From Elusimicrobiota bacterium (GTDB taxonomy: Bacteria; Elusimicrobiota; Elusimicrobia; Elusimicrobiales; UBA9959), in contig JACRER010000016.1 in assembly GCA_016234365.1 (NCBI GenBank), forward strand, positions 1 through 64,000: 64,000 nt of DNA, written 5' to 3'. Positions 6,591 through 44,201 of this stretch are shown here, in pieces; positions within the stretch are counted from its first letter, which is position 1; the number at the start of each line of letters is the position of its first letter. The notes under the pieces were generated by a model. That model worked only from the letters and a program-made list of their open reading frames with translations. It was not told the origin of the DNA and did no database searches. The translations under genes were made by a program, and so were the position numbers.

Positions 6591-6596
6591 CGTTTA

Positions 6597-7673: not shown

Positions 7674-7704
7674 AGGTATTAGCTCCAGGAAAAACGGTGT
7701 AAGT

Positions 7705-22274: not shown

Positions 22275-23129
22275 TTAGAACTTCACTCCGGCTCCGATGG
22301 AGACGAAGCTGTGGTTGGTGGTGCCGTTGTCGAAGATCTGGTAAGCCACGTTGGCCACCAGCATATTCAGGTCAACGTAGCCGCCCAGCGTAACGGCGGA
22401 GCTGTCCTTGGCGCCCTTGTACTTGGTGGTGGTGTAGGCCGCGAAGGGCGTAACCATGGGGATGGTGGACGGGATATCCACGCGGGCGGTCACGCTGGAG
22501 CGCGGCTTGGCTATCACGGCGAAGTCGAGGCCCGGCACAAAGCCCTGCGGGGTCGCGTCCTCGGAACCGTAGGCATAGCCGGTGTAGGAGGCGGACAGGT
22601 TAAGCATCAGCACCTTGGCGCCGGCGAACAGGGAGGCCGCGGTCTGGGAGGTCTTAAGGTCCGTGGTGCCCGCGGTGTTGGTGTGCTGGGTCTGCCTCAG
22701 GGAAGCGCCCACGTCCACGCGGGTAACGCCCTTGCCGCCGCCGGAAACGGAACGCGCGCCGGGGCCGGCCAGGCGGGACTTGCCGCCGGAGGTGGGGGTC
22801 AGCGAGAGGGTAACGTCGCCGCCGGCATAGACGTTCTTATAGCCGTTCACTTCGGGGGTGACGCCGGCTTCGGCTCCTACGGTATAGGCTTCCTGCTCCC
22901 ACGCGCCGCGCAGGCCGTAGGTGCGGTAGGTCTTTTTTGCCCCGGTATCGTACTTGTAGCTGGTCAGCGACGGCTGCAGGGCGAAATCGCCCTCGCCCAC
23001 GCGGAGGTCCAGCTTATAACCGCTGTAATCCTTGCCGGTGGTGCCGGTCAGGCCGCCGTCGAAGTACAGCGCGGAGGCGTTGAGGCCGAGGCCCGCCACC
23101 AGAGTCAGAGAAACTATCAGTTTTTTCAT
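22275..23129 (-). CDS. Exported outer-membrane beta-barrel-like protein, uncharacterised
   Basis: Signal peptide MKKLIVSLTLVAGLGLNASA, alternating hydrophobic strands, terminal aromatic GAGVKF. Confidence 0.6.
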   Translation of the reverse strand: MKKLIVSLTLVAGLGLNASALYFDGGLTGTTGKDYSGYKLDLRVGEGDFALQPSLTSYKYDTGAKKTYRTYGLRGAWEQEAYTVGAEAGVTPEVNGYKNVYAGGDVTLSLTPTSGGKSRLAGPGARSVSGGGKGVTRVDVGASLRQTQHTNTAGTTDLKTSQTAASLFAGAKVLMLNLSASYTGYAYGSEDATPQGFVPGLDFAVIAKPRSSVTARVDIPSTIPMVTPFAAYTTTKYKGAKDSSAVTLGGYVDLNMLVANVAYQIFDNGTTNHSFVSIGAGVKF

Positions 23130-23166: not shown

Positions 23167-24216
23167 TCAGGCCGCCTTCGCGAGTTCTTTGTTGAGGAAG
23201 TCGGCGTAATTGCGGGCTTTGCGCTTCTTCCAGGAGCCCTTGTGGTAAGCGTAGCCGGCTATCAGCGGGAAGGCCAGCGTGGCCTCGGCGTACACCATCT
23301 GCTCCTGCGTGGTCTGCACCTTGCCCCACGAGCAGGCCTCCTTCAGCGTCGAGGAGGATAGCCCGCCGTCTCGCACGTCGGCCACGGTCACCTGCACCGC
23401 GTACTTGTGCATGGGGGCCTCTTCGCCCAGGATGTCGGCCGCCACCACGGTGTCCTGCGTAAAATTCTTGGGCACTCCGCCGCCTATCATCAAGAGGCCC
23501 GTGTCGCGGGCTTCTATTTTCAGCTTGGTAAGCTCCAGGAAATCTTTAGCGGAATCCATGGACATGTGTTTGCCCGGGTTGTTCCACTGGTGCTCTATCA
23601 TGCCAAAACCCGCGGAGCAGTCCGAAAAGGCCGGCACGAAGATGGGCACGCGCTTTTCATAGGCCGCCAGCACCACCGAGTCCTTGTTCCTGCCGTGTTT
23701 AGAGAGGTAGCGGCCCATCTCCTCTATGAACTCGCGGGAAGAATACGGGCGGGGCTCCAGCGAATCGGCTATCTTGCGCGTGGTCTGGTCGCAGACGCGC
23801 AGCTCGTCCTCGTCTATAAAAGTGTCGTAGATGCGGTCTATGCGCAGTTCACGCAGTTCGTTGTCGTCCACCCCGCCCGCGGCGCCTTTGTAATGTTTGA
23901 AGCCCAGCGCCTCGAAGAAATCCTGGTCCACCATTACCGCGCCCGTGGAGACTATGGCGTCCACCATGTTATTGCGCACCAGGTCCACCACCACTTTCTT
24001 AAGGCCCGCGGAGAACAGGGAGCCCGCCAGCGTCAGGATGACCGAGCAGTTGCGGTCCTGCAGCATGGTATCGTAAATTTTGGCCGCGCGGGCCAGGTCC
24101 CGGGCGGAAAAAGCCATCTCGCCCATGGCTTCCACCATGGGCACCACGTTATGCCTGGAGATCTCTATGTGCTTTACCGCGTCTTTAAGGTAATCCTGCT
24201 TCTTCATCCTGGGCAT
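23167..24216 (-). CDS. Deoxyhypusine synthase family protein
   Basis: AGSLFSAGLKKVVVDLVRNNMVDAIVSTGA, GFKHYKG, GGGVPKNFTQDT (position of the DHS catalytic Lys), SGISSSTL-like DVRDGGLSSSTL. Confidence 0.85.
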   Translation of the reverse strand: MPRMKKQDYLKDAVKHIEISRHNVVPMVEAMGEMAFSARDLARAAKIYDTMLQDRNCSVILTLAGSLFSAGLKKVVVDLVRNNMVDAIVSTGAVMVDQDFFEALGFKHYKGAAGGVDDNELRELRIDRIYDTFIDEDELRVCDQTTRKIADSLEPRPYSSREFIEEMGRYLSKHGRNKDSVVLAAYEKRVPIFVPAFSDCSAGFGMIEHQWNNPGKHMSMDSAKDFLELTKLKIEARDTGLLMIGGGVPKNFTQDTVVAADILGEEAPMHKYAVQVTVADVRDGGLSSSTLKEACSWGKVQTTQEQMVYAEATLAFPLIAGYAYHKGSWKKRKARNYADFLNKELAKAA

Positions 24217-24323: not shown

Positions 24324-27300
24324 CTACCTGGGCAGGTAGGTCTGGGGCAGCTTATACTTGTCCAGCAGAGCCTTGGCGGAAGTAAACGCGCCCCAGTAGG
24401 TCTGGTAAGCGCGGTCCGTCGCGGGCTGCAGGCTCTTATAGTTCTCGGCCGCCTGGTTCATAACGCTCTTCTGCTTCAGGAGCTGGGCGGTGTAACCTGG
24501 ATGCTTTACCCCATAGAGCGGGTCCTTCTTACCAAGGTCGAGTAGTTTGTTGAAGGAGTCTTCCTCCGCGCGCCAGCGGTCCAGCGCGCCGTCGGACTTG
24601 CTCTTGGCGTTCATCCACAACAGGCGGGCGTCGGAAGCTTTCTTCACGGCGTCCTGCGCGTCCGGGTAGGACTCCAATTTAGCCGGCTTGGGCTTGGGCG
24701 GATGGACAGGCGTCACAGGGGTCACAGGCGTAACAGGATTCGCCGGCACCGAGACTTTGGCCAGGCGGGCGGCTTCTTTAATATTGGCGTCGAACAGGCG
24801 CGGCTCGGACTGGGAATTCTGCCTGTCCATGGCGGCCCGGACCTGCCCCAGGCGTTCCTTTACCTGGCTCAGGCGCTCGGCGGAAATGCCGGGCTTGAGC
24901 TCCGCCTGGAGCCTGCCTACCTCGTCGCCGTACTTCTTCATGGTGTCGAGGTTGCCGTTGGCGGCGGCGAGATACTGCCGGCAGGTGTCACCGGTGCACT
25001 TGCCGCTATTGGCCACCAGGTTATACCTGGCCTGGGCGTCCTTCAGCTGCGGCGCCATGTCCCCGGCCAAGTTGGCCGCGGAAGCGGAAACATCGTTAAG
25101 GCCCGGCACGGAAGTGCCGCCGGTGTTAGGGTCAACAGGCTGAGTGGTGCCGGCCCCGGCGCACCCGGTCCCGCCGAAATAATGACAGGTGTCCACTATC
25201 CCGGCCAGGTCTTTCTTGGCCTGGTCGATATAGCCTACGGCCACTTTGGCGTCGCGGCTTATGCCGGACAGGTCAACAGAGGCCACGAAGGCCTGTATGG
25301 CCCCGCTGCGGGCTGCGTTGGCCACAAAGTTTGTGGTAGGAGTTATCTGGGCGGCCTGCTTGGCGTTGACGGCGGCCAGGTAGGGGTCCCATACCTTATT
25401 CTCGGCGGCGGCGGAATCGGCGCTGTCGTAAACGCGCTTCTCCGTGGGCCACAGCTTATCCCATTTTACGCCGCGTATATCTTCGGCTATCGCCCTCAGC
25501 GGGGCTTTGTCCGCGGGCGTAGTGCCGGCGGCGGTTTCCTTGGCGCCCTTCTGCGTGCCGGCGGCCGCGGAGCCCTTGGGCTGCACGGCGGTCCGGCCGG
25601 TGGCCTTGGCAAGGCGCTCGTTCAGCGGCAGCGAGGTGTCGACGAGGACGTTGCCCATCGCGCCGGACTTCTGGGTATGCGCCCCGGTAATCTGGCCTAT
25701 CGCACCCTTCAACTGGCCAAGCTCGGTATTGAAAGCGTTGAAGCGGAACTCCTCGGCTTCCAACTTTCCCTTGGCGTTGGCCAGGTTTTCCTTAACAGGG
25801 GCCTCGTAGAGGGCTATTATCTTCTTGACCGCGTCGGCGTTTATATTAGGAGCGGTGTCTGCGGCGCCGGCCGTTTTTTCGGCAACGGCGGGGCCGCCGG
25901 CCTTGACGTCCTTGGAGACCTTCATGTTGGCGCCGTCGGCGAGTATCTTTTTCACCGCCTCCTGGTAGGCCAGGTTGGCCCGTTCCGCGGCCGCATAATC
26001 GCCTTTGGCGGTCAGGATGCCGTCGCGGTACTTCAGGTTGGCGGCCACGGCGGAACTATTGGTCTCGCCTAGTTTCTGCGCCACTACCGGCACTACGGCC
26101 TCCAGTTTCTGCACGTTGCCGGCCAGGTCGGTAAGGTCCTTCACAGGCTGGCCGTCGCTCAGCGCCTTCTCCATAAGGAGGGTGGAGTCTATAACGGCGT
26201 CGAAGGCTTTGTCGTAGTCGGTAAAGAGCTTGGCGGCGTCGTTGGAGATGGCCTGCGGGGTGCCAGGAACCGCCGGACCGCCGGGGTTCTGGGGGCCCGC
26301 CGGCGGGGTGCCGCCGGGAGAGTATTCCTTACCTATGGGCTGGTTAGCCTTGCCGCAGATGCAGTTGACCTGCGCGCCAGAGCCCTTGTCTTTGCCGGCA
26401 GCCTCCCAGGCGAACTTCTGGGCACCGGGATCGTAGCACAGGTCCACGGCGGCGACTTTCTTATACTGTTTCACCATCTCCGCGCAATTGCCGTCCGGAC
26501 ATACCGCGGGCTGCCAGCAGAAAGTAGGCTTGGGCTGCGCGTCCAGGCCGAACACGTGGCTCAGGCTGCCGTCCACCATCTTGGTGAGCGGGCCGGTGAT
26601 GCCGGTAAGGATGGCCTCTATGATCTTCTTGGGGATCTCGTACTGCTTATAGAATTCCCATTCCAGCGCCTTCTGCTGGCGCTGCTTGGCGGCCATTTCG
26701 GCGAGCGACTCGCCGGAGCGGCTGTGGTCGTACTTGTTATTGGAATTGGAGGTACGGCCGGTCTTTTCGGAATCGCCGCCGTAACCCAGCCCGCCGCCGC
26801 CGGCGCCCAGGTTCACGGAATCGGCCGCGGCTTTATCCAGCGAACCGATAGCCGAGCCGCCGCCGAAGTTGCTGGCGGCCCTGTCGCTGGCAGCGCGCAG
26901 CTTCTCGAAAGCGCCCTTGGAGGAACTGTTGGGGGTATTGGAAGCCACGCCCTTATAGCCGGGCGTAGCCACGGGCCCCACCATGGAGCGCTTGGCGGAC
27001 TTGCCGGAAGCGGATTTGGCGTCGTCTATTATCTTGCCGCCGCCCAGGCTGCCGGACGTGCGGGAATTCTCACCGCCGCCGAAGAAAGAACCGAAACTGC
27101 GCAACGCGGACTGCATGCGCGGCACCGGCGTAGGCGAGGGCGCGGCCTTGGCGGCCTCGCTGAAAGCGGCGCGGCCCACGTCCTTCATGGAGTCGCGGAA
27201 ACTGCTGGCCGGAGGGGCGGGCGGCGGGGCCGCGGGAGTAGCCGGCTGGGCGCCCAGGATCAGGGAGGCCGGATCGCGCGAACTCAGCGGGGTTATCACC

Positions 27301-27650
27301 TCGCCGGAGCCGTCGGGAGAGCCTTGGCTGAGCGCGTTGATGCCGGGCTCATAGAGGCCGTTGGGAGCGCCGCCGGAAGCGCTTGAGCGCTGGCCGAAAC
27401 CGCCGGTCAGCATGTTTTCAGGAGAAGGCTTGGACATCATGTACTCGGCCACGGGCGCCATCACCAGCACGCTCATGCCTATGCCCACAAAAGCCAGGTC
27501 CTTGCGCGAGAGGTTCTTGAGGCGGTCCATTATGCCGCCGGCGGTCCTGGAGAAAAGCGGCGACTTGCCGAAGGCGGACGTTTTCTTAAAGCCCGCGCCG
27601 GGCGCTATGGGCGCTCCGTCTTTTTTTTCGTCTTCGTTGTAGAAGTTCAT
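24324..27650 (-). CDS. Giant low-complexity membrane-anchored protein (1108 aa), member 6 of the paralogous envelope cluster
   Basis: N-terminus MNFYNEDEKKDG similar to MNDYNEKKEKKGG of 31171..32955; TM DLAFVGIGMSVLVMAPVAEYM; Gly/Ser/Ala linkers; KGAFEKLRAASDRA; Cys-rich segment FCWQPAVCPDGNC; PVTPVTPVTPVHPPKPKP. Confidence 0.75.
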   Translation of the reverse strand: MNFYNEDEKKDGAPIAPGAGFKKTSAFGKSPLFSRTAGGIMDRLKNLSRKDLAFVGIGMSVLVMAPVAEYMMSKPSPENMLTGGFGQRSSASGGAPNGLYEPGINALSQGSPDGSGEVITPLSSRDPASLILGAQPATPAAPPPAPPASSFRDSMKDVGRAAFSEAAKAAPSPTPVPRMQSALRSFGSFFGGGENSRTSGSLGGGKIIDDAKSASGKSAKRSMVGPVATPGYKGVASNTPNSSSKGAFEKLRAASDRAASNFGGGSAIGSLDKAAADSVNLGAGGGGLGYGGDSEKTGRTSNSNNKYDHSRSGESLAEMAAKQRQQKALEWEFYKQYEIPKKIIEAILTGITGPLTKMVDGSLSHVFGLDAQPKPTFCWQPAVCPDGNCAEMVKQYKKVAAVDLCYDPGAQKFAWEAAGKDKGSGAQVNCICGKANQPIGKEYSPGGTPPAGPQNPGGPAVPGTPQAISNDAAKLFTDYDKAFDAVIDSTLLMEKALSDGQPVKDLTDLAGNVQKLEAVVPVVAQKLGETNSSAVAANLKYRDGILTAKGDYAAAERANLAYQEAVKKILADGANMKVSKDVKAGGPAVAEKTAGAADTAPNINADAVKKIIALYEAPVKENLANAKGKLEAEEFRFNAFNTELGQLKGAIGQITGAHTQKSGAMGNVLVDTSLPLNERLAKATGRTAVQPKGSAAAGTQKGAKETAAGTTPADKAPLRAIAEDIRGVKWDKLWPTEKRVYDSADSAAAENKVWDPYLAAVNAKQAAQITPTTNFVANAARSGAIQAFVASVDLSGISRDAKVAVGYIDQAKKDLAGIVDTCHYFGGTGCAGAGTTQPVDPNTGGTSVPGLNDVSASAANLAGDMAPQLKDAQARYNLVANSGKCTGDTCRQYLAAANGNLDTMKKYGDEVGRLQAELKPGISAERLSQVKERLGQVRAAMDRQNSQSEPRLFDANIKEAARLAKVSVPANPVTPVTPVTPVHPPKPKPAKLESYPDAQDAVKKASDARLLWMNAKSKSDGALDRWRAEEDSFNKLLDLGKKDPLYGVKHPGYTAQLLKQKSVMNQAAENYKSLQPATDRAYQTYWGAFTSAKALLDKYKLPQTYLPR

Positions 27651-27823
27651 AACTGCCTCCGGATCCTAATATAACTGAGATATCCCTTAATAATACGTCT
27701 AAAACGTGCCGGTACAAGGCTCCAATTATAATTTACCTAATATCCGCGCCGCAGCCAAGTGTCATTGGACCCCTGAACCGCTGGGCCTTATGGCCCACGC
27801 CGGGCGCCGCGCTTAAAGACCGC

Positions 27824-27861
27824 AAAAAAGCCCGCCGGCAAAGCCGGAACGCCTACCGGGC
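27824..27861 (-). terminator. Probable rho-independent terminator between cluster members 5 and 6
   Basis: Minus strand gcccg..ccggc-ttt-gccgg..cgggc followed by TTTTTTG. Confidence 0.55.
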
Positions 27862-27991
27862 GCTCCCGGAGGAAAACCACGCGGGCGCGGAAAGGTCCGC
27901 ACTCAACACGCTGCCGCCTTACTGCTGTAGTTGCGCACCCGCTTCCTCCTACGCTTTACCTCGGGCTTAAGAAATCCGAACGGGCACACCG

Positions 27992-29545
27992 TCAATTCTT
28001 GTCGCCGGCCGCGGTCTTGCCAAGTATCTCGCCGGCGGTCTCCATAACGCCCATCACCAGTTTAGACACCGGTCCGAAGAATATGCCCATACCCAGGGTA
28101 ATAAGAGTACCCAGTATAGAGCCCATCAGGCCCGGGAACATGATAGACGCCAGCATACCCACGCCTATGGCCGCCAGCCAGATCTGGCCGGTCATCAGGC
28201 CGACAACAACCATAATGATGGCCAATATGATACTCAGGAAGCATTTCAATTTGGAACACGGCTTGATCCTCATGCTGCTGTAGCTGCCGCAGTCCATGGG
28301 ACTGCTCTTGTTCTGGCACGCCGCGGTGAGCTGGGCCTCGTTGACGTTGAAATCCTGGCAGTACGAGACGAGCCTGTCTATTTTGCGGTTCCACGCGCCC
28401 ACGTTGCCGCAGCACTTGGGCGGCTTGCCGAGGTTCTTTACGCCCTCGTCTATCAACTTGCCGTCTTCCGACATCTTGGCGCCGTTGGTGCCCTGCGCGT
28501 CGGAGCAGGTCTTAGCGGCATCCTGCATGCCGTTGACCCCGTCCATAAGGCTGGTGGTCATGCCGGTATCAGGCATGACTACGCCTGCGTCGGTCTGGAG
28601 CACGTCCATATTAACGTCGTTGCCGTCGTAAGTGGCGCCGGTGTAGGCCGCCTGGTACTCCGGACCGGACGCCTTGGACTTATAGGCCGTGGCCGTAAGC
28701 GCGAAGGTCTGCGACAACTGGAACATGGGGCGCAGGCTGCCCGTCTTCACGTCCATCTTGGTGTTCTTTTTATTGTAGCCCACGTTCTTCCACGTAAAGC
28801 CCGACACGCGGCCCATGCGCTTGGTATTGACCTTCTGCGGCTTGCCGGGCAGCGGCACCTTGGCGCCAGACTGGTTGTAAACGTTGTTGAATACGCCGGT
28901 GGTGCGGTTGCCCACGGAAGGCCCGCCACCGGACATGCTGCCGCCTACGTAGGGGCTGCTGCCGGACCCGTTGAAGCGCTCGGCCAGGTTCTGCCCCATA
29001 ACGTCGCCGTACAGGCCCTGCCCGTCGGCGCCGCCGCCAGCTATCAGGTTCCCCAGGTTAACGTCGTCCCCGGTCTCGCCGCGGGCGCGCTCTTCCTCGT
29101 TGACCACGCCTTTTACCGGGCCCTTGGTGCCGGGGTCCTTAACCTCCGGCAGCCCGAAAATATCGCCCCCGCCGCGGATCATGGCCATGGACGACTGCCC
29201 GCCCGCCGGCGGCAGCGTGGCGTTGATGCTCTTGAGGAACTTGTTCCAGAACGAATTGTTCTGGCTGTCCTCGGCGGCCTTGTCCAGCGCCGCCTTCAGC
29301 AGGTCGTTGGAGTATTTGGGGTTAAGCGAGGAAACCACGCTGCTCATGCCTACGGAGCGCAGGAACGCGGCCACAGGCCTCAGCTCGATCATGCGGCTGA
29401 GCATCTCGCTCGAGACCACGAAGGGCAGAGAAAGTATCATCACCATCAGCATTATGCTGATGTATTTAGCCCTGCCCTGGAAGATGAACAAGAGGGCCGC
29501 AAGTACGGACTTGCGCCGGTGCTTTTCTATGAATTTGTTGCCCAT
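27992..29545 (-). CDS. Membrane protein with Gly/Ser-rich linker, Cys-rich domain and C-terminal TM helices (517 aa), cluster member 5
   Basis: N-terminal TM YISIMLMVMILSLPFVVSS; GSLRPMFQLSQTFALTATAYKSKAS..ATYDGND aligns by eye with member 4; many Cys; C-terminal CFLSIILAIIMVVVGLMTGQIWLAAIGVGMLASIMFPG. Confidence 0.75.
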   Translation of the reverse strand: MGNKFIEKHRRKSVLAALLFIFQGRAKYISIMLMVMILSLPFVVSSEMLSRMIELRPVAAFLRSVGMSSVVSSLNPKYSNDLLKAALDKAAEDSQNNSFWNKFLKSINATLPPAGGQSSMAMIRGGGDIFGLPEVKDPGTKGPVKGVVNEEERARGETGDDVNLGNLIAGGGADGQGLYGDVMGQNLAERFNGSGSSPYVGGSMSGGGPSVGNRTTGVFNNVYNQSGAKVPLPGKPQKVNTKRMGRVSGFTWKNVGYNKKNTKMDVKTGSLRPMFQLSQTFALTATAYKSKASGPEYQAAYTGATYDGNDVNMDVLQTDAGVVMPDTGMTTSLMDGVNGMQDAAKTCSDAQGTNGAKMSEDGKLIDEGVKNLGKPPKCCGNVGAWNRKIDRLVSYCQDFNVNEAQLTAACQNKSSPMDCGSYSSMRIKPCSKLKCFLSIILAIIMVVVGLMTGQIWLAAIGVGMLASIMFPGLMGSILGTLITLGMGIFFGPVSKLVMGVMETAGEILGKTAAGDKN

Positions 29546-29628
29546 AATATCCTCCCCGGCGCCGCCGCCTCAGGGTAAGAACCCGGACCGCACCTTATAA
29601 TAGCCGCAAAAATATTCCTGCGTTACGC

Positions 29629-29663
29629 CCGTTGCCGCCGGGGTTAAAACCCGGCGGCAACGG
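29629..29663. repeat. 14-bp perfect inverted repeat in the intergenic region between members 4 and 5
   Basis: ccgttgccgccggg-gttaaaa-cccggcggcaacgg, no adjacent T tract. Confidence 0.6.
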
Positions 29664-29685
29664 CCTCAAGCTGCGCTCCGCGGCG

Positions 29686-31119
29686 TTACTTGCCGCCCAG
29701 CATGCTGCCGATCATCACCGCTATGCCGGCCACGGCGGACATCACCATCTGCCAGCCGTTAAGCGCGGCGTTACCGGCCATAGCTATGCCGGCCGCGGCA
29801 ATGGCGGCGCCGCCCGCCACCATATACATATTGCCCATCGCCTTCTGACCGAAACTCGACCCCAACTGGGAACCGGCGGACATCACCATGGCGGCGAGGC
29901 CCATGGCGATAACGGCAACTACGATACCCACCCAGTACACCCACGGGGGAACTTTAATGCTGCAGAGGTAACTGGCGATGGCCGACAGGATCAATGAGAT
30001 GGTCAGGAGCAACAGCGCCTTTGTAAGGAGGGCGGTCCATGGGCTCACGTCCACGGGGCCGCCTACATCCGGCACCACGGGGTTGGGATTGCCCGCGCCG
30101 CCGCCGCCGTTGGCTCCGCCCGCGTTATCCAGTGAAGGCGAAGACATGATGCCCGCGCCGCCGTCGCTGAGGCCGCTGCCGCCGGTGGCGCTGCCGTCGG
30201 GCGTGGCGCCGCTCCACGCGGCGTTCTGCGTGCCGGCCATCTGGTCGGCGGAACTGCCGCTATAGGACCGCTGCGTAGCGCGCAGGCCCTTGGCCTGGCC
30301 AAAAGCGCCGGCCCCGAACTTCCCCTTCTTACCAGCGCCCGCGCCGCTGAACAAGGGGCGCGCGGACCCTTTCATGGCCGTCATTTTACCTTTGCGGGCG
30401 TCGAACTTGGGCATACCCTGGAACCCGGAACCGATGCCCGCGCTGAAGCCGGTCTTGGCGCCCATCTGGCCCTGGTTGAACTTATTGCTGAAGCCGCCCA
30501 TCCCCGAGAACTTATTGGAGCCGCCACCCATGGAGCTGGTCAGCGAGCCCACCTCCCCGCCCTGCAGTTTGCCCATCATGGCCTGGGCCATATTGCCCTG
30601 GTCGGGGGCAGGCTGGTCCTGAGCCGCGGCCTCTTCGGCCGGCGCGGGTTTATCATCCGCTGGCTTGGCCGCTTTCTTGGAAGGGTCCTCCTCCATAGAG
30701 AGGCCCGCGCCCTTGTTGGTGTCCTTGAACATGTCCAGCGAAGAGCCCTGGTTGGCCGCCTGGCTGCGCAGGATGGCGGGCACGTAGTTATCCTGCACCC
30801 TGCCTCCGGAGAACGAACTGTTGCTGCCGGTGGGTGCGGGCGCCTGGTTGGCCAGGTACACGCCGCTGGCCACCGCCACCGCGGCGATGGTTGCAAGGAT
30901 ACTGGCCTTGCCGGCCAGCAGGCCGAGGATGCCGTTGGAAGCGCCGAACTTGCCGGCGCCCATGGCCGCACGGCCAAGGTTCATGGCTGACGGGTTGATC
31001 CCCGCTTCGCCCATGGCGCCGCGCGAGCCCAGGCCCAGCCGGCTGCGAAGCCAGCCGAGCGCGCCCTTCTTCTTCTCCTTCTTTTCCTTAAAGTTTATGT
31101 CAGGCAGATTGTCGTTCAT
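29686..31119 (-). CDS. Multi-TM low-complexity membrane protein, cluster member 4 (start trimmed to MNDNLPDINFKEKKEKKK)
   Basis: GGAGG ribosome-binding site before the trimmed start; TM; LDMFKDTNKGAG; GAFGQAK; PVDVSPWTALLTKALLLL; 4-5 C-terminal TM helices. Confidence 0.78.
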   Translation of the reverse strand: MNDNLPDINFKEKKEKKKGALGWLRSRLGLGSRGAMGEAGINPSAMNLGRAAMGAGKFGASNGILGLLAGKASILATIAAVAVASGVYLANQAPAPTGSNSSFSGGRVQDNYVPAILRSQAANQGSSLDMFKDTNKGAGLSMEEDPSKKAAKPADDKPAPAEEAAAQDQPAPDQGNMAQAMMGKLQGGEVGSLTSSMGGGSNKFSGMGGFSNKFNQGQMGAKTGFSAGIGSGFQGMPKFDARKGKMTAMKGSARPLFSGAGAGKKGKFGAGAFGQAKGLRATQRSYSGSSADQMAGTQNAAWSGATPDGSATGGSGLSDGGAGIMSSPSLDNAGGANGGGGAGNPNPVVPDVGGPVDVSPWTALLTKALLLLTISLILSAIASYLCSIKVPPWVYWVGIVVAVIAMGLAAMVMSAGSQLGSSFGQKAMGNMYMVAGGAAIAAAGIAMAGNAALNGWQMVMSAVAGIAVMIGSMLGGK

Positions 31120-31170
31120 AACGCCTCCAGCTCTACTCACCGATTACGCTACAGCACATGCATCAACCAA

Positions 31171-32955
31171 CTACTCGGGCAGGATAGTGCCGCCGCCGGT
31201 AGTTGTGGCAACACTACCGGGCGCGGCATTAATAACAACCTGCGTGGGTGGGGCCGCAGGCGCAGTCACGGCAGGCGCCACGCCAGACGCAGTCACGGCA
31301 GGCGCAGGCGCAGGTGCCGCAGTATAAGTCCCGTTGGGGGCGATAGTCCCCTGGGGCGTGCCGGCAATGCTCACATTCCCGTTGACGACGCTGCTGTTGG
31401 GCACTGGGCCGTTGGCCCCGACCACATTACCCGGCGCGCCGTCCACCCCTGAAATGGCGTACTGCCCGTTGCCCATGGAAGTAGCACCTTCAGGAGGAGT
31501 TATGCTGGTAGTACCGTTGGCGGTCTCGGTAAACCCTGTCATCTTGGACGCATCACCGCCCGCCGCGGCGTAATTATTGCCGAAAGCCTGCCCGGAATTA
31601 TAGCCCGGGCAGCCCTTGCCCATGGCCCCAAGGTCGGCGCCGCTCTTGGTGGCGGCCTCGCCGACACCGCAGAGAGCCTGGTAGGCCTGGTACATAAGCA
31701 TGGCGCCGGCGACCACGTACATCAAGCCGGCATATTTCTGGCCGTACTTGGTCATCAACATCATACCGGACACTATAACCAGCGCGGCCGCGGCCATTGC
31801 GGCGTAGGCGGTCACCATGGCCGCCATATACATCCACGGCACACCCTTGGCGAACTTGGCAAGCATGTTGGTGATAAGGATCAGCACTGCGGCCGCGAGC
31901 ATGGCGTACATGGCGCGGTCCGTCCACTTCTTCCACGGTGAAACGTTAACAGGATCCGGCACCTTGGGAGGCGTGACCTGGCTGTTGTTAAGGCTTGGGT
32001 CGCTGCCCTTAAGCTTGGAGCCGCTGGCAACGCCAGCCCCGCCAAGGCCCATGCCCGCGTTGGGCGCCCCTACGTCGCCGGTTCCCACGTTCTGCGAGGA
32101 GTCAAAGGGGATGCCCGACTGCCCCCTGGCGCCGACGTCGCTGCTGTAGCGCGCCTTGGCGCCCATGTTGTTGGCGAACTTGGCCTGGCCGAAGGCGCCC
32201 TTCTTATTGAAGTTGGGCACCGCGTATTTGGGAGAATTCTTTACCCGGGCCGCCGCGGAGGCGGTCATGCCGGACATTTTGCCGCCGTTGGCCGTGGCCG
32301 GAGGCCTGTAGACGGACTGGAACTGGCCGCCTATGCCGCCGGAAAGCCCGGCGCCGCCGCCTGACATGCGCGGCATGGCGGAACCGCCGCCGGCGCCGCC
32401 GCCCTTGGAACCAAAGCCCGCGCCGGCCTGCAGCTTGGGCCCGCCGCCCATGCCCGCGCCGTCGGCGCCGGGAGCCGCCGGGGCCGCCGCGTCGGCGGAG
32501 GCTGACGCCGCGGCGCCGGAAGCCTGCGCCTCCGGCGGCTGGCCGTCGGCGGATTCGCCGCCAAGGCCTATGCCTTCTTTTTTAGCCTGATCCCTGAACA
32601 TATCCAGCGTAGAGGAAGCGGCGGCGGCGGTATTGCGGGCCTGGGCCCTTTCGGCGCCGGCCTTATTTGATTCCTCTTCGTAATAACTGTTCTGGAACAA
32701 CTCGGGAGAATAGGCCGGCTTTGAGGAGGGGCCTACAAAGTTGTAGACCACGCCCACCCCTGCGGCAATAGTGGCGCCGCCCAGCACCAGGCCCAGCAGG
32801 CCCGCCTTGGTGGCGAAGAGGCCGCCAAGGCCACCCGCGGCCCCGCCGGCAGAACCGAAGCCGGACCCCGCGGCAGACCCGCCGCCGCGCAGCAGCCCGG
32901 AAAGTAGGGAGCCGAAGCCGCCCTTTTTCTCTTTTTTCTCGTTATAGTCGTTCAT
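31171..32955 (-). CDS. Multi-TM low-complexity membrane protein, cluster member 3 (594 aa)
   Basis: MNDYNEKKEKKGGFG; TM; LDMFRDQAKKEGIG; KGAFGQAKFANN; SDPSLNNSQVTPPKVPDPVNVSPWKKWTDRAMYAML; C-terminal TM helices; Ala/Pro/Thr tail. Confidence 0.78.
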   Translation of the reverse strand: MNDYNEKKEKKGGFGSLLSGLLRGGGSAAGSGFGSAGGAAGGLGGLFATKAGLLGLVLGGATIAAGVGVVYNFVGPSSKPAYSPELFQNSYYEEESNKAGAERAQARNTAAAASSTLDMFRDQAKKEGIGLGGESADGQPPEAQASGAAASASADAAAPAAPGADGAGMGGGPKLQAGAGFGSKGGGAGGGSAMPRMSGGGAGLSGGIGGQFQSVYRPPATANGGKMSGMTASAAARVKNSPKYAVPNFNKKGAFGQAKFANNMGAKARYSSDVGARGQSGIPFDSSQNVGTGDVGAPNAGMGLGGAGVASGSKLKGSDPSLNNSQVTPPKVPDPVNVSPWKKWTDRAMYAMLAAAVLILITNMLAKFAKGVPWMYMAAMVTAYAAMAAAALVIVSGMMLMTKYGQKYAGLMYVVAGAMLMYQAYQALCGVGEAATKSGADLGAMGKGCPGYNSGQAFGNNYAAAGGDASKMTGFTETANGTTSITPPEGATSMGNGQYAISGVDGAPGNVVGANGPVPNSSVVNGNVSIAGTPQGTIAPNGTYTAAPAPAPAVTASGVAPAVTAPAAPPTQVVINAAPGSVATTTGGGTILPE

Positions 32956-32976
32956 AAATCCTCCGCTATCCTTAAA

Positions 32977-33921
32977 TTATTTGCCGGGGGCAGGGAACAT
33001 GCTGTTGGCCATCGCCCCGAACATGGGCCCTATCACGCTCTGGAATATCATCTGTATCAGCATCTTTTTAAACTCTTCGTCGCTCTTGTCGTCCTTGACC
33101 GGCTTGGGCTCCGGCACATTGACCTTGGACTTGTTCATATTAGGATCGTTCTTTTTAAGGTCCGCGGCGGTCTGGCCCAGCTGTAGCCCGGCCGTGCCGG
33201 CCTGGTTCTCTATAGCGCTGTTAAGGTCTGACCCGGTGGCTTTGGCGGAATTGGTGAAGGCGGCGGCGGCGCCGCCCTTGGCCGCGTCGATATTGCCGGT
33301 CTTGGCGGCAAGCTGGCTCTTGTCGGCCGTGCTGTTGAGCATGGCCAGCGTGGCGGACCTCTTTTCTTCGGGCCCGTTAAGCTTCTTAAGGTCGGGACCG
33401 GTGCTGGCGGCGAATTCCGCTTTCTGGCCGCCTGAACCGAAGAATTTGTTATGGAGACCGCCGGCGGTCATGGAGTTGGAATTACCGCCGCTTATGGAAG
33501 CCACCGAGTTAAGCTTGCCCATGGGGGCGGCGGGGGCCGGGGCGCCCATAGAGGACGAAGGCGGCAACGCGGGAGCGGAAACCGAAGCCGCGGCGGTCAC
33601 CGGGGCGTCGGCGGTCTCCTCGCCCATTATTCCCGACTGGAAGAGGGAAGAGGCCACCTCTTCACCGGAGGTAGCGGGATTGTTGATCATTTCGCCGCTG
33701 AGGGGCGAACCGGGGGCGCCGCCCTCGGAAGGAATATCGCTGCCCAGAGTGGAGATGTCCGCAACTTTGGAACGGAAGGGATTGCCGGCCGAGACGGAAG
33801 CGTCCATGGAAGAATTGTTCATCAGCGGCAGAGAGATCCAGAGGCCCAGTATGATGACGGCCACCACGGCGCCTATCACGTACTGCGTGCTTTTGGGTTT
33901 CCTGGTTTGGATTTTGATCAT
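32977..33921 (-). CDS. Single-TM low-complexity protein, cluster member 2 (start trimmed to MIKIQTRKPKSTQY)
   Basis: TM YVIGAVVAVIILGLWISLPL; NDPNMNKSKVNVPEPKPVKDDKS parallels the DPSLNNSQVTPPKVPDPV of member 3. Confidence 0.72.
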   Translation of the reverse strand: MIKIQTRKPKSTQYVIGAVVAVIILGLWISLPLMNNSSMDASVSAGNPFRSKVADISTLGSDIPSEGGAPGSPLSGEMINNPATSGEEVASSLFQSGIMGEETADAPVTAAASVSAPALPPSSSMGAPAPAAPMGKLNSVASISGGNSNSMTAGGLHNKFFGSGGQKAEFAASTGPDLKKLNGPEEKRSATLAMLNSTADKSQLAAKTGNIDAAKGGAAAAFTNSAKATGSDLNSAIENQAGTAGLQLGQTAADLKKNDPNMNKSKVNVPEPKPVKDDKSDEEFKKMLIQMIFQSVIGPMFGAMANSMFPAPGK

Positions 33922-34019
33922 AATCCCGCCCGTATTGTGCCTTCTTCCCCTCAAAAAATAAACTTAAACCTTCTTTGACACAGCCACCTGGCGTTCAAAG
34001 CAAAGCTAATTTCCCTAAT

Positions 34020-34048
34020 GTTATAGCAGACAAACCTTGACTTGTCAA
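34020..34048 (-). promoter_or_regulatory. Sigma70-type promoter for cluster members 2-5
   Basis: Minus strand TTGACA-N17-TATAAC, extended -10 TCTGC; CTTGAC-N2-GTCAAG inverted repeat over the -35. Confidence 0.75.
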
Positions 34049-34076
34049 GACCAAGCATCACCGTTACGGCAAGCGG

Positions 34077-35327
34077 CTACCTTGGAGCGACATTGGCCCC
34101 CTCCATGGGGCTGAACCACCCGATCACCTTGGTGGTGCCGTCAGGTTTGACGAGCACGTTACAGGCGTCGTTGTAGGGTACGGTCTCCCCTTTGTACGCG
34201 GCCGTAATGCCCGGCCCAGTACCAGCATAATTAACCTGCATTATCTTGCCTTCAGATGTAGAGCCTATCTGGGTGTAAGATATCCCGGTATCCGTAGGGA
34301 CCTTGCTCTTAGCCATGGAACTGCACAGCGGCGTGGAGGAGTTGGCCGCGCAACTGCCGGACTCCATGGGGCCGCTCCCCTGGGCCCTGTCGGTATCCTC
34401 ACTGCCGCTGCCGCCGGATACGGAATTGCCGAGCCCCTGGCCCACGGCCCCCAGCATAGAGGAAGCCATGCTCTTTTTTATGGCGTCCTCGGCGGTTTCC
34501 TGCGCCTTCTTAAGCGCGGGATCGGTAGCCGCACCGGCTTTTTCGTCCTTGACCGGCGCCGCCACGTCCGGGATCTTCAGGGATTTGGGGTCCGTGGTCT
34601 TGAGATTGTCTATCTCGCCTTTCTTTATCTTATCCAGATTCACCAGCCCGCTCTTGGCATAAGCCAGTTCGCTCCCCCCCCCGGAGCCCGCCCTCCCGGA
34701 GCCGAAACTGGCGTCCCACTTACCCTTGGCAGTGGAAGCGGAGCCGCTGCGCAGCCCCTCGCCCAGCATGGCGCGCGTCTTAGCGAGGGCGCCAAGCGTT
34801 CCCTTGCCCGTCTCGCCAGCGGCCGCGGCCTCCGGGGCCTTGGCGGCTATCTTGGTATTGCCCGAATCGGAACCCTCACCGAAGCGCGACACGCCCCCGG
34901 AGGATTTGGAGCCGCCACCGCCGCCGCCAACTCCGGAAGTGCCGCCGCCCTCCATCCTGGGGATACTGGAAGGTGAAGCCGAACGGCCCGAGGAAGGGGG
35001 CCGGGACCACGGAACTTCATCCTCGGACTTAGAGGAAGTTCCCGCGCTGTCCAGGATGCCGGCCGCGGCGTATTCCTTCTCGCGCGGGCGTTCCTTGGGG
35101 CCTTCTTTGGCTATAGACTCCACATCGTCGAAACCGATGAATTTGAAGAAAGAAGCCGTAGCCTCGCGGGCGGCGCCGCCGTAGGTGAAAGTGTTCTTCT
35201 TGCCGGAATCAGTAAGGTCGTTGGAGCCCTGTATGACGAAGAAGAGAAATACCCCGCCGCCTATGAACAGGAAAGCGAGCACGCTCACTATGAGTGTTTT
35301 TTTTCTGTTCTCAGAGTTGTCGGCCAT
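34077..35327 (-). CDS. Single-TM low-complexity protein, cluster member 1 (416 aa)
   Basis: TM TLIVSVLAFLFIGGGVFLFFVI; Gly/Ser linker; TTDPKSLKIPDVAAPVKDEKA; C-terminal small domain with Cys. Confidence 0.75.
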   Translation of the reverse strand: MADNSENRKKTLIVSVLAFLFIGGGVFLFFVIQGSNDLTDSGKKNTFTYGGAAREATASFFKFIGFDDVESIAKEGPKERPREKEYAAAGILDSAGTSSKSEDEVPWSRPPSSGRSASPSSIPRMEGGGTSGVGGGGGGSKSSGGVSRFGEGSDSGNTKIAAKAPEAAAAGETGKGTLGALAKTRAMLGEGLRSGSASTAKGKWDASFGSGRAGSGGGSELAYAKSGLVNLDKIKKGEIDNLKTTDPKSLKIPDVAAPVKDEKAGAATDPALKKAQETAEDAIKKSMASSMLGAVGQGLGNSVSGGSGSEDTDRAQGSGPMESGSCAANSSTPLCSSMAKSKVPTDTGISYTQIGSTSEGKIMQVNYAGTGPGITAAYKGETVPYNDACNVLVKPDGTTKVIGWFSPMEGANVAPR

Positions 35328-35414
35328 AACAGCCCCCTATCACAAACACAAAAAACATCCCGCTTTTCACCTTTCCCGGAGGGGAAACTGAAAAAACAGG
35401 TATCCGTTCTTTAG

Positions 35415-35443
35415 AGTCTAGCAGACGAAACCGGAAATTTCAA
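35415..35443 (-). promoter_or_regulatory. Promoter for cluster member 1
   Basis: Minus strand TTGAAA-N17-TAGACT with TCTGC extended -10. Confidence 0.65.
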
Positions 35444-35455
35444 GGGCCCTTGAAA
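35438..35455. promoter_or_regulatory. 18-bp perfect palindrome TTTCAAGGGCCCTTGAAA between divergent promoters (putative operator)
   Basis: Sequence equals its own reverse complement; both -35 hexamers lie within it. Confidence 0.7.
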
Positions 35456-35478
35456 AAACAGCCCCCCTCTGCTAGGCT
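35450..35478 (+). promoter_or_regulatory. Promoter for the divergent secreted protein 35498..36925
   Basis: TTGAAA-N17-TAGGCT with TCTGC extended -10, about 20 nt before the ATG. Confidence 0.65.
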
Positions 35479-35497
35479 ATGAGGCAGGTACGAATTT

Positions 35498-36925
35498 ATG
35501 CGCCACTTATTACCCATCATCCTCATATCGTCCGCCCTTTCGTGGGCCGCGGCCGGCGAGCCCGCCAAGGTCCCGTGGGGCTCCGGGGTTTCAAAAGATT
35601 ACACGGTCTGGCGCTGGATAGAGGCTTTCACCGACGACGACGAGCGCGGCTGGGACGAACTGGGCGCCGAACAGCAGGCGGCCGACCTGGGCAAGGCGGT
35701 CCGCGCCTGCTCAAAGGCGCAGGCCAAACTTTCCGCCACGCGAGGGCAGACCGACGGCAAGGCCATACTGGCGGTCTCCGACGGGGACCTGGAGTACCTG
35801 GCCGTGTGCCGCAACGACGGAGAAGCCGCTTCGGCTTCGCTCCAGGAGACAAGGGACAGGCTGGCCGCCATCAAGGCCAGGGCAGACAAGGGCGTTTACA
35901 ACGAAGCGGATATGGCGTGGCTTAAAACGAAAGGGATAACTATGGAGTACAAGCCGCCTCCCGGGGCGGAAGACGCCAAAAAACTGGCGGACCGGGCCAA
36001 GAAGCAGGAAAAGACCGCCGCCGCCGTCAAGAAGAAGTACGACGGCATGAAGGACATGGACGAAGCGAAAGCCAAAAAGTTCTTCGACGGCGGCAAAGGC
36101 GGAACTTCGGACGCCGACAGCGCCGCGGTGAACCTCTCCGGGAAAAAATTCAAGGGGCAGGCCCTGAAAGCGGATACGAGGGATCCCAAGAAAAAACTCA
36201 CCTCCACCGCCCCTCCGGACATAAGCGGCAAACCCGGGCCGGTCCAGGAAGGAACTTTTGCGTGGAACGGGAAAAAGATATCGGCCGGTCAGCAGGCGCA
36301 GCTGGACAAGTGCCGCGCCCAAAAGTGCGAGCTAATGGATATGCTGCGGATAGTTGACCCGGACAAGCTCAAAGCGCCCCACAGCTATGCCAGCCCCGCG
36401 AACGCCAAAGAGATAGCCAGGATGGAGAAGGAATTCAAAAACCTTGCCGGCCGCGAGCTCACGTTCAACGACCTGCTGGCCCTGCGCTCGGATGCTCATG
36501 GCCCGGCCTCCGGCTACGAAAGCAACAACCTCGCCGCGCTGGAGCACAAATATTTCGTCAACGACCAGGTGAAGGACGCGCTTGCCAGGTGCCCCTCGAC
36601 CCCGGGCCTTTACCATGCGTGCTACCTGGCCACCCAGGCCATGCTGCGCGTGGCGGCGCCCACAGTGTACGAATACGGCAAATCCTACATGGCCAACGAG
36701 AAAAAGGCCGCCGCCGGCGACCCGTTCGCGGTCACCCAGCAGGTACTTACCCTCCCTATGCTGCCGGCTAACCTGGCGGTGAAGGGCCTGGTCATAGGGT
36801 CCAAGGACGGAGTCTCGATGGAGACCGTCAAAAAGACGTTCCGGCCTGCGGACGCCGGAAGCATAGGGTCCACCCCCTCCGGACAGAATATCCTGTGCGC
36901 GATGGGAGCGTTCTGCGGGGACTGA
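35498..36925 (+). CDS. Secreted uncharacterised protein (475 aa), divergent partner of the envelope cluster
   Basis: Signal peptide MRHLLPIILISSALSWAAA; Lys/Ala-rich helical middle; Cys-containing C-terminal domain. Confidence 0.75.
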   Translation: MRHLLPIILISSALSWAAAGEPAKVPWGSGVSKDYTVWRWIEAFTDDDERGWDELGAEQQAADLGKAVRACSKAQAKLSATRGQTDGKAILAVSDGDLEYLAVCRNDGEAASASLQETRDRLAAIKARADKGVYNEADMAWLKTKGITMEYKPPPGAEDAKKLADRAKKQEKTAAAVKKKYDGMKDMDEAKAKKFFDGGKGGTSDADSAAVNLSGKKFKGQALKADTRDPKKKLTSTAPPDISGKPGPVQEGTFAWNGKKISAGQQAQLDKCRAQKCELMDMLRIVDPDKLKAPHSYASPANAKEIARMEKEFKNLAGRELTFNDLLALRSDAHGPASGYESNNLAALEHKYFVNDQVKDALARCPSTPGLYHACYLATQAMLRVAAPTVYEYGKSYMANEKKAAAGDPFAVTQQVLTLPMLPANLAVKGLVIGSKDGVSMETVKKTFRPADAGSIGSTPSGQNILCAMGAFCGD

Positions 36926-36992: not shown

Positions 36993-37481
36993 TTAATTCC
37001 CTTTCTTATCAGCCTGTTTGCGCTCGCCGCGCTCCTGCCCGCGCTCGCCCTGGCGCTGCATGCGCTCTCCGCGTTTTTCCATGCGCTCGCCGCGGTTCTC
37101 TTTGCGCTCGGCGTTCTGCTCCAGTTTATCCGCGGCCTTTTCATTGCCTTTCTCGCGCTGCTTGTCGGCCTGCGTTTCCATTTTCGCGGCCTGGTCCTGC
37201 AGCTTCTCGCCCCGCTTCTCAACGGCCTCGCCGCGCTCTTCGCGCCGCTCACCGCGCTTCTCCTGGCGCTCGCCGCGTTTTTCCCGCATTTCCTTGCGGT
37301 GCTCGCGGCGCTTCTTCATCTCGCCCTTATCCTTCTCGCCACCCTGCTCCCGGGGCTGCTCTTTAGGCTGCACCTGCTGCTCGGCCGGTTTCTGCTCCGG
37401 CTGGGCAGCCGGCTGCTGGTTCTGGGCATAAACCGCGCCGGCAAAACCCGCCAGCAGCGCCGCGACTAATACTTTTTTCAT
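36993..37481 (-). CDS. Secreted, highly charged Glu/Lys/Arg heptad-repeat protein (162 aa)
   Basis: Signal peptide MKKVLVAALLAGFAGAVYAQ then EKRGERx-type repeats. Confidence 0.75.
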   Translation of the reverse strand: MKKVLVAALLAGFAGAVYAQNQQPAAQPEQKPAEQQVQPKEQPREQGGEKDKGEMKKRREHRKEMREKRGERQEKRGERREERGEAVEKRGEKLQDQAAKMETQADKQREKGNEKAADKLEQNAERKENRGERMEKRGERMQRQGERGQERGERKQADKKGN

Positions 37482-43117: not shown

Positions 43118-44129
43118 ACTGCTGTCCGCCGCCCTGCTCGCCGCCATCCTGGCCCTGCCTCTCAGGGCGCAGGACCCCGCCCCCGCCGGCGGCGCCATGG
43201 TAAAGTTCGCCACGCTGGCTCCGGACGGCTCCACCTGGATGAAGGCCATGAAGCAGTTCACCGACGAGACCACCGCCAAGACCGCCGGCCGCGTCAAATT
43301 CAAGATCTACGCCGGCGGCGTGTCCGGGGACGAGAAGGACGTGGTGCGCAAGATCCGCCTGGGCCAGCTGCAGGCCGGCGGGTTCACCGGGGTGGGCATA
43401 GGCGAGATCGCCCCCGAGGCGCGCCTGCTGGACACCCCGTTCCTTTTCAAGAACGCCAAAGAGATAGACCACGTCTACAAGACCTTCGACGCCGACTTCC
43501 GCAGGATCTTCGAGAACCGGGGCTACGTGCTGCTGGGCTGGGCGGAGGTGGGCAACGTCAACATCTTCTCCACCACGCCGGTCACCAAACCCGAGGACCT
43601 GCGCAACGTGAAGATGTGGATCTGGGAAGGCGACCCCATAGCGGAGGCCACCTTCGCCGCGCTCAACATCAAACCCATCCCGCTCTCCATCACCGACGTG
43701 ATGACCTCGCTGCAGACCGGTATGATCAACGGCGTCTACGGTTCCCCCCTCTCGGTGATAGCGCTGCAGTGGTTCGCCCGCATGAAGTACGTTTTCGCGC
43801 TGCCGCTCACCAACGCCTCCGGCGCCGTGGTGATCTCCAAAAAGACCTTCGACTCGCTGTCGAAGGAGGACCAGAAGACCATGCTGGCGCTGGGCGACAA
43901 GTATTTCCGCGCGCTTACGCTTGCCAGCCGCAAAGAGAACGAGCAGTCCGTGGGCGTGCTCAAAAGCAAAGGCCTGACCTTTACCGAGCCGGCCACCGCG
44001 GCCGTGGCGGCCGAGCTGGAGAAGGCCGGCAACTCCGCCCGCCAGGCCCTGGTGGGCAAGCTCTACTCCAGGGAACTGCTGGACAAGGTCGAGGGCGCGC
44101 TTAAGGCCTTCCGCAGCGCCAAGAAGTAG
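43104..44129 (+). CDS. dctP: TRAP transporter solute-binding protein DctP
   Basis: VKFATLAPDGSTWMKAMKQF, GRVKFKIYAGGVSGDEKDVVRKIRLGQLQAGGFTGVG, MWIWEGDPIAEATFAAL. Confidence 0.92.
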   Translation: MTSSKLLSAALLAAILALPLRAQDPAPAGGAMVKFATLAPDGSTWMKAMKQFTDETTAKTAGRVKFKIYAGGVSGDEKDVVRKIRLGQLQAGGFTGVGIGEIAPEARLLDTPFLFKNAKEIDHVYKTFDADFRRIFENRGYVLLGWAEVGNVNIFSTTPVTKPEDLRNVKMWIWEGDPIAEATFAALNIKPIPLSITDVMTSLQTGMINGVYGSPLSVIALQWFARMKYVFALPLTNASGAVVISKKTFDSLSKEDQKTMLALGDKYFRALTLASRKENEQSVGVLKSKGLTFTEPATAAVAAELEKAGNSARQALVGKLYSRELLDKVEGALKAFRSAKK

Positions 44130-44151
44130 TTATCTTATCCCCGGGAATTAC

Positions 44152-44178
44152 AAAAGGCCCGGGCAACCGGGCCTTTTT
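44152..44178 (+). terminator. Rho-independent terminator after dctP
   Basis: aaaaggcccgg-gcaa-ccgggcctttt followed by T. Confidence 0.8.
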
Positions 44179-44201
44179 GCATCGAGTGCCCCCCACTTTC
44201 G

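What the first reader, a model, noticed from the sequence alone, without database searches (positions are those of the whole stretch)
24324..36925. Candidate undescribed envelope system: six tandem membrane-anchored low-complexity paralogues plus a divergent secreted protein
Six consecutive minus-strand genes (35327 down to 24324) encode proteins with a short cytoplasmic N-terminus, one TM helix and a long Gly/Ser/Ala/Lys-rich spacer. The C-termini differ: soluble in members 1 and 2, multi-TM in 3 and 4, Cys-rich plus TM in 5, large alpha-helical in 6. Several short motifs recur. N-terminal MNDYNEKKEKK / MNDNLPDINFKEKKEKKK / MNFYNEDEKKDG. LDMFRDQAKKEG / LDMFKDTNKGAG. KGAFGQAK / GAFGQAK / KGAFEKLR. 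GSARPLF / GSLRPMF. A hinge DPSLNNSQVTPPKVPDPVNVSPW / DPNMNKSKVNVPEPKPVKD / DPKSLKIPDVAAPVKD / VVPDVGGPVDVSPW. This suggests one ancestral module diversified by tandem duplication into a multi-component complex. I recognise no known secretion, pilus or conjugation family in it.
Basis: partly seen in the sequence, partly recalled or inferred. Interest (0 to 1): 0.82.

Follow-up and report, generated by a model that had tools for sequence, protein, structure and literature searches.

The report
Displaced Tad-pilus membrane-protein block in Elusimicrobia
These six neighbouring genes make membrane-anchored proteins found only in Elusimicrobia so far; in most other Elusimicrobia families they sit inside the gene cluster for a hair-like Tad (type IVc) pilus, so they are most likely unrecognised parts of that machine whose genes have moved elsewhere in this bacterium's family.

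Summary
The six minus-strand genes are real and form an operon-like block (M1-M6, 35327 to 24324). Block order is kept in over 20 genomes of the family, usually followed by an outer-membrane barrel-like gene (22275-23129). M3 and M4 are clear paralogues; M1, M2 and M6 are weakly linked; M5 is not. The divergent secreted gene (35498-36925) does not belong: it is patchy and unlinked. No Pfam, NCBIfam, PDB or Foldseek match exists. Function comes from other Elusimicrobia families. There M2-M6 lie directly downstream, on the same strand, of a Tad/Flp (type IVc) pilus locus: 15 of 15 same-contig pairs lie within 28 kb. The window's genome has that Tad locus, collinear, on another contig. It ends just where M2 would start and has no M gene. 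So the block is most likely a lineage-specific membrane module of the Elusimicrobial Tad system, displaced in this family. Its exact role (anchored scaffold, surface-display arm, or substrate set) is inferred, not shown.

The parts
34077..35327 (-). M1: 416 aa, N-terminal TM, conserved Gly/Ser-rich region to about residue 250, variable C-terminus; seen only in the window's family
32977..33921 (-). M2: 314 aa, N-terminal TM and conserved low-complexity region with LKxNDP motif; first gene after the FtsH-like gene in Tad loci of other families
31171..32955 (-). M3: 594 aa, TM, conserved spacer, two or three C-terminal TM segments, variable tail; duplicated in some relatives
29686..31119 (-). M4: 477 aa, clear paralogue of M3; start corrected from GTG 31140 to ATG 31119
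27992..29545 (-). M5: 517 aa, TM, region 74-337 predicted disordered, helical domain with invariant Cys (about 340-435), C-terminal TM segments
24324..27650 (-). M6: 1108 aa, conserved first 350 residues (TM and VITPLSSRDPASLI motif, mostly predicted disordered) followed by variable helical-bundle modules (460-1108)
22275..23129 (-). OMP: 284 aa signal-peptide protein, barrel-like, ends in GAGVKF; follows the block in most f1 loci; presumed partner
23167..24216 (-). Deoxyhypusine-synthase-family gene (PF01916) between M6 and OMP in some genomes; neighbour, not a member
35498..36925 (+). Secreted 475-aa protein named in the finding; NOT part of the conserved unit
   Evidence: 7 of 41 genomes, none of the relatives' copies next to the block

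Best explanation
M1-M6 are lineage-specific inner-membrane-anchored accessory proteins of the Elusimicrobial Tad (type IVc, Flp) pilus/secretion apparatus. Their genes have been separated from the Tad locus in this family. Shown: M2-M6 follow the Tad genes (Flp pilins, TadE, CpaB, secretin, ParA-TadA, TadB, TadC, TadG-like, TadE-like, FtsH-like) on the same strand in other families, and the window's genome has the same Tad locus without the block. Inferred: each protein is held in the inner membrane by its TM, and its long disordered but conserved stretch reaches across the periplasm, binding its sister proteins and the Tad machine. The fast-evolving C-terminal modules (largest in M6) form the distal, lineage-variable working end near the outer membrane or cell surface. 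The locus-encoded FtsH-like AAA protease may control the level of these proteins or of pilins through their cytoplasmic tails.
For: Own-genome Tad locus C87:12031-37871 is collinear with f7/f8 loci: BIG1180, PorV-like, Flp, Flp, TadE, CpaB, secretin, ParA-TadA, TadB, TadC, TPR, regulators, TadG-like, TadE-like, FtsH-like. It stops where M2 should begin and has no M homologue. Its Tad identity rests on RcpC PF16976 and TIGR03177 above cut-off, Secretin PF00263, TadE PF07811, T2SSE, two T2SSF and a class III signal peptide. M2-M6 directly follow TadG-TadE-FtsH-like in f7 and f8, and TadG-TadE in f2 g17. 15 of 15 same-contig M6/TadG-like pairs outside f1 lie 10.7-27.8 kb apart, including one in a single-contig 3.8-Mb genome. 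82 of 88 M6-positive genomes carry TadG-like (expected 50; Fisher 1e-18, not corrected for phylogeny). Divergent M2/M5/M6-like genes sit at the same place in gut f2 genomes, and an M2-like gene in f10. Disorder of conserved halves and helical C-terminal modules of M6. Variable C-termini.
Against: In the window's family the block is not beside Tad genes in any locus examined. The Tad locus can exist without an adjacent block, for example G045, and TadG-like occurs in 86 genomes without a detectable M6 (partly because M6 is diverged there). No physical or genetic interaction data exist. M1 and OMP were found only in f1. Co-occurrence is confounded by shared ancestry.
Confidence: 0.72

Rival explanations
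1. M1-M6 (with N1/N2 in other families) are substrates or surface proteins exported or displayed by the Tad apparatus rather than parts of the machine: a tethered surface coat or adhesin set with lineage-specific tips.
For: C-terminal modules of M6 and M1 change between close relatives while the anchor half stays constant. In f7/f8 two large secreted proteins (N1, N2) follow M6. M6-like/N1-like pairs recur in G237.
Against: Five to six distinct anchor halves kept in fixed order look more like fixed subunits than interchangeable cargo. M proteins keep a TM anchor and show no prepilin-type cleavage site.
Confidence: 0.3
2. The block is an independent envelope system that merely neighbours the Tad locus in some families.
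For: It is unlinked in the window's family. One f2 genome (G045) has Tad without the block next to it.
Against: Same-strand adjacency in f7, f8 and f2 g17, with divergent versions in gut f2 and f10; 15 of 15 same-contig pairs within 28 kb; 82 of 88 co-occurrence.
Confidence: 0.15
3. A free-standing new secretion or pilus system made of six tandem paralogues and a divergent secreted protein.
For: No family match for any member.
Against: No ATPase, platform or pilin in the block. The secreted gene is not conserved with it. Tad linkage elsewhere. Only M3/M4 are firm paralogues.
Confidence: 0.05
4. M proteins are long minor pilins (pseudopilins) of the Tad pilus.
For: Single N-terminal TM after a short tail, encoded next to TadE/TadG-like genes.
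Against: No G|xxxxE-type processing site in any M N-terminus, whereas Flp, TadE-like and TadG-like here show G-Q sites before the helix (sequence). No TadE/pilin Pfam match.
Confidence: 0.05

Closest known systems
Tad / Flp (type IVc) pilus, including Tad systems already reported in Elusimicrobia (Denise et al. 2019, PMC6668835)
   Same: The block belongs by synteny to a locus with Flp-type class III signal pilins, TadE, RcpC/CpaB, secretin, TadA, TadB and TadC.
   Different: No Tad component known to me corresponds to M1-M6. The locus also has a ParA-TadA fusion, a short secretin, an FtsH-like protease, a PorV-like protein and a two-component relay. M1-M6 are encoded apart in the window's family, although Tad is almost always a single locus (PMC6668835).
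Kil apparatus of Myxococcus (Tad-like, contact-dependent killing; PMC8460266)
   Same: A lineage-specific Tad-like machine encoded in two unlinked clusters.
   Different: No M1-M6 counterpart is described among its core parts in the passages read. No homology was tested here, and no predatory function is implied.
RcpC/CpaB Tad alignment complex (PMC12307814)
   Same: Inner-membrane TM plus a periplasm-spanning part, the role I infer for the M proteins.
   Different: RcpC is a folded dodecamer and has its own orthologue here. M proteins are predicted disordered in their conserved halves and match no RcpC model.

Membership tests
Tad (type IVc) pilus locus in the window's genome | TadA-type ATPase | tested here: met
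   C87: PF00437 E 4e-62; TIGR03819 TadA 329 bits (below its 373 cut-off), fused to a ParA/MinD domain
Tad (type IVc) pilus locus in the window's genome | Two half-size inner-membrane platform proteins TadB and TadC | tested here: met
   two adjacent T2SSF (PF00482) proteins
Tad (type IVc) pilus locus in the window's genome | RcpC/CpaB and secretin | tested here: met
   PF16976 and TIGR03177 above cut-off; PF00263 E 2e-42
Tad (type IVc) pilus locus in the window's genome | Flp-type pilin with class III signal, TadE minor pilin | tested here: met
   PF04021 and PF07811 above cut-off
Tad (type IVc) pilus locus in the window's genome | Prepilin peptidase TadV | not tested
   not searched; can be encoded elsewhere (PMC6668835)
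M1-M6 as components of the Elusimicrobial Tad system | Conserved physical linkage to Tad genes | tested here: met
   f7, f8, f2 g17; 15 of 15 same-contig pairs within 28 kb; not linked in f1
M1-M6 as components of the Elusimicrobial Tad system | Physical interaction with, or requirement for, the pilus | not testable with these tools
   needs experiment
Known Tad or type IV pilus component families (TadE, TadG, pilins, PilN/O/P, RcpB) | Profile match of M1-M6 | tested here: not met
   no Pfam or NCBIfam match above cut-off
Type IV prepilins / pseudopilins | Prepilin peptidase site (G/A followed by hydrophobic helix with E at +5) | tested here: not met
   N-termini of M1-M6 read directly
TrbL/VirB6 or other T4SS membrane families | Profile match of C-terminal TM regions of M3-M5 | tested here: not met
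   no match; M5 model without PDB match

The most novel reading that the evidence does not exclude
Elusimicrobia have turned the Tad pilus into a different kind of surface machine: a set of five to six membrane-tethered, intrinsically disordered arms with interchangeable distal modules, policed by a dedicated FtsH-like protease, works with the pilus motor for contact or protein display. No described Tad system known to me has such a sub-complex.
Probability: 0.3. Interest if true: 0.8.

Novelty: new variant of a known kind. Interest (0 to 1): 0.6.

Why it matters
Tad pili are widespread in adhesion and biofilms, and their part list is thought nearly complete. A conserved five-to-six-protein membrane module plus a dedicated AAA protease, built into Tad loci across a bacterial class and detached in one family, would add a new kind of component. 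It also gives a function handle to large unnamed proteins in uncultured Elusimicrobia. The case shows that conserved 'low-complexity spacers' can be the functional core.

Tried and rejected
Family searches (Pfam, NCBIfam) and PDB profile searches with M-block proteins and OMP: nothing above noise; coiled-coil/F-BAR hits to M6 are generic helices. Foldseek of the M5 and M6 models: no match with E below 0.1; M5 mean pLDDT only 48.7. Secreted gene S as a member: rejected. N1-like protein in the own genome: no significant match. Charge of the spacers as a polymer-binding clue: near neutral. Mobile-element carriage: none in viral contigs or plasmids. Literature: among held papers only Denise et al. 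2019 was found to mention Tad in Elusimicrobia; the groundwater Elusimicrobia genome paper is not held.

Full report
What is there. The window comes from an Elusimicrobiota genome; named relatives are Elusimicrobia and Elusimicrobiales MAGs. Families are given here by the tool's anonymous labels: f1 is the window's own family, f2 another family of the same order, f5-f14 other families of the class. Between 35327 and 24324 six minus-strand genes lie in a row, here called M1 to M6. Each has a short N-terminal tail, one TM segment and a low-complexity stretch (52-67% G/S/A/N/Q/P/T, near-neutral charge). M3-M5 have further TM segments near the C-terminus. Downstream follow a deoxyhypusine-synthase-family gene (PF01916) and a 284-aa signal-peptide protein ending in GAGVKF. 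That last gene follows the block in 17 of the f1 loci examined.

Conservation. The order M1-M2-M3-M4-M5-M6 is kept in more than 20 genomes of the same genus and family. Conservation runs opposite to the first impression. The TM plus low-complexity half is the conserved part (M6 residues 1-350 about 78% modal identity, M2 1-100 about 80%). M1 beyond about 280, M3 beyond about 430 and M6 beyond about 350 diverge strongly, and M6 carries different C-terminal modules in different relatives. Some genomes carry a second M3 copy or an extra stretch of about 1.6 kb between M4 and M5.

Are they paralogues? Profile-profile comparison of the conserved halves with shuffled-column controls gives a firm result only for M3-M4 (E 3e-19, probability 99%). 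M1-M6, M2-M3, M2-M4 and M1-M2 score 28-40 against 9-19 in controls, which is suggestive. M5 matches none. Recurrence of the quoted motifs exceeds composition-shuffled sequences, but the motifs were chosen after the fact.

Known families. None of the proteins matches Pfam or NCBIfam above cut-off, or PDB sequences beyond generic coiled coils. AlphaFold models give residues 74-337 of M5 and 1-318 of M6 below pLDDT 50. M5 has a moderately confident helical Cys-rich region, and M6 460-1108 is a string of confident helical modules. Neither has a PDB fold match.

The decisive context. A profile of the M6 N-terminal half finds the family in 88 of 296 sampled genomes of the phylum: nearly all of f1, two f2 genomes, and many in f7, f8 and f12-f14. 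In f7/f8 the order M2-M3-M4(s)-M5-M6 is kept. It is followed by a large secreted protein (N1, about 640-1200 aa) and often a giant one (N2). Upstream of M2, on the same strand, is an FtsH-like AAA-M41 protease, then TadE-like and TadG-like genes, regulators, a TPR protein, TadC, TadB, ParA-TadA, secretin, CpaB, TadE and Flp-type pilins. This is a Tad/Flp (type IVc) locus. The f2 genome G165 has a similar arrangement. Gut f2 genomes have divergent M2/M5/M6-like genes at the same place, and f10 an M2-like gene.

The window's own genome carries this Tad locus on another contig (C87:12031-37871), gene for gene in the same order. It ends with the FtsH-like gene, exactly where M2 begins elsewhere, and holds no M homologue. 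Pfam and NCBIfam confirm CpaB/RcpC, secretin, TadE, T2SSE, two T2SSF and a class III signal pilin. No Tad component lies near the block in 27 f1 loci. The block is therefore best read as the missing part of the Tad locus, displaced in this family. The direction of the move (out of the locus in f1, rather than into it elsewhere) is inferred from the distribution over several families.

Strength of the link. Outside f1, 41 of 43 M6-positive genomes have the TadG-like gene. In the 15 where both lie on one contig they are 10.7-27.8 kb apart, including a single-contig 3.8-Mb genome. In the other 26 they are on different contigs of fragmented assemblies, so linkage there is untested. Over 296 genomes 82 of 88 M6-positive genomes have TadG-like against 50 expected; shared ancestry inflates this figure. 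Against it: TadG-like occurs in 86 genomes without a detectable M6, and one single-contig f2 genome (G045) has Tad with no block next to it.

How it may work (inference). Six bitopic proteins with long flexible conserved stretches could cross the periplasm beside the pilus conduit, holding each other and the machine. The rapidly changing C-terminal modules would be the exposed end, where contact with surfaces, partners or other cells drives divergence. The FtsH-like protein keeps Walker A and HExGH motifs and could act on the cytoplasmic tails. Whether the M proteins are machine parts or Tad-dependent surface proteins cannot be decided from sequence.

Known and new. Tad systems in Elusimicrobia are already reported (PMC6668835). 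I found no description of this block, of the FtsH-like gene in the locus, or of the split arrangement, in the papers available here. Closest in spirit is the Tad-like Kil system of Myxococcus, also encoded in two clusters (PMC8460266), but no homology was tested. I rate it a new variant of a known kind.

Noticed in passing
L088-L104 and L117, downstream of M6 (for example L088:5925-8567 and L088:1-5803; L095:9274-19500): Two unnamed secreted protein families follow M6 in f7/f8: N1 (about 640-1200 aa) and giant N2 (up to at least 3400 aa), no Pfam match.
   Followed up: partly
L091, L098, L100, L103, L123 between M4 and M5/M6: Lipid/polyketide-like genes (ketosynthase, ACP, AMP-ligase, LpxL-like acyltransferase, acyl-CoA dehydrogenase, B12 radical SAM) inserted inside the Tad-linked block in several f7 genomes.
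   Followed up: partly
G000:C87 29107-31302 (L151:9107-11323) and f7/f2 relatives: ParA/MinD (TadZ-like) domain fused to the TadA ATPase in one protein.
   Followed up: partly
L094 (G237:C41:122000-141900), L097, L124: Extra M6-like copies, in G237 followed by repeated N1-like genes; tandem M6 duplicates in G157 and G161.
   Followed up: no
window 35498-36925 and L110-L115: Secreted protein with conserved first 250 residues and variable C-terminal half, patchily scattered in relatives.
   Followed up: partly
window 5400-9474: Separate type IVa pilus genes (PilC-, PilT- and PilB-like) in the same window, so the genome holds both pilus types.
   Followed up: no
window 36993-37481: Short secreted Lys/Glu/Arg/Gln-rich protein, found just upstream of the block in several relatives.
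   Followed up: no
window 44000-47000: Local drop in G+C (0.53-0.55 against about 0.62) over secreted-protein genes.
   Followed up: no
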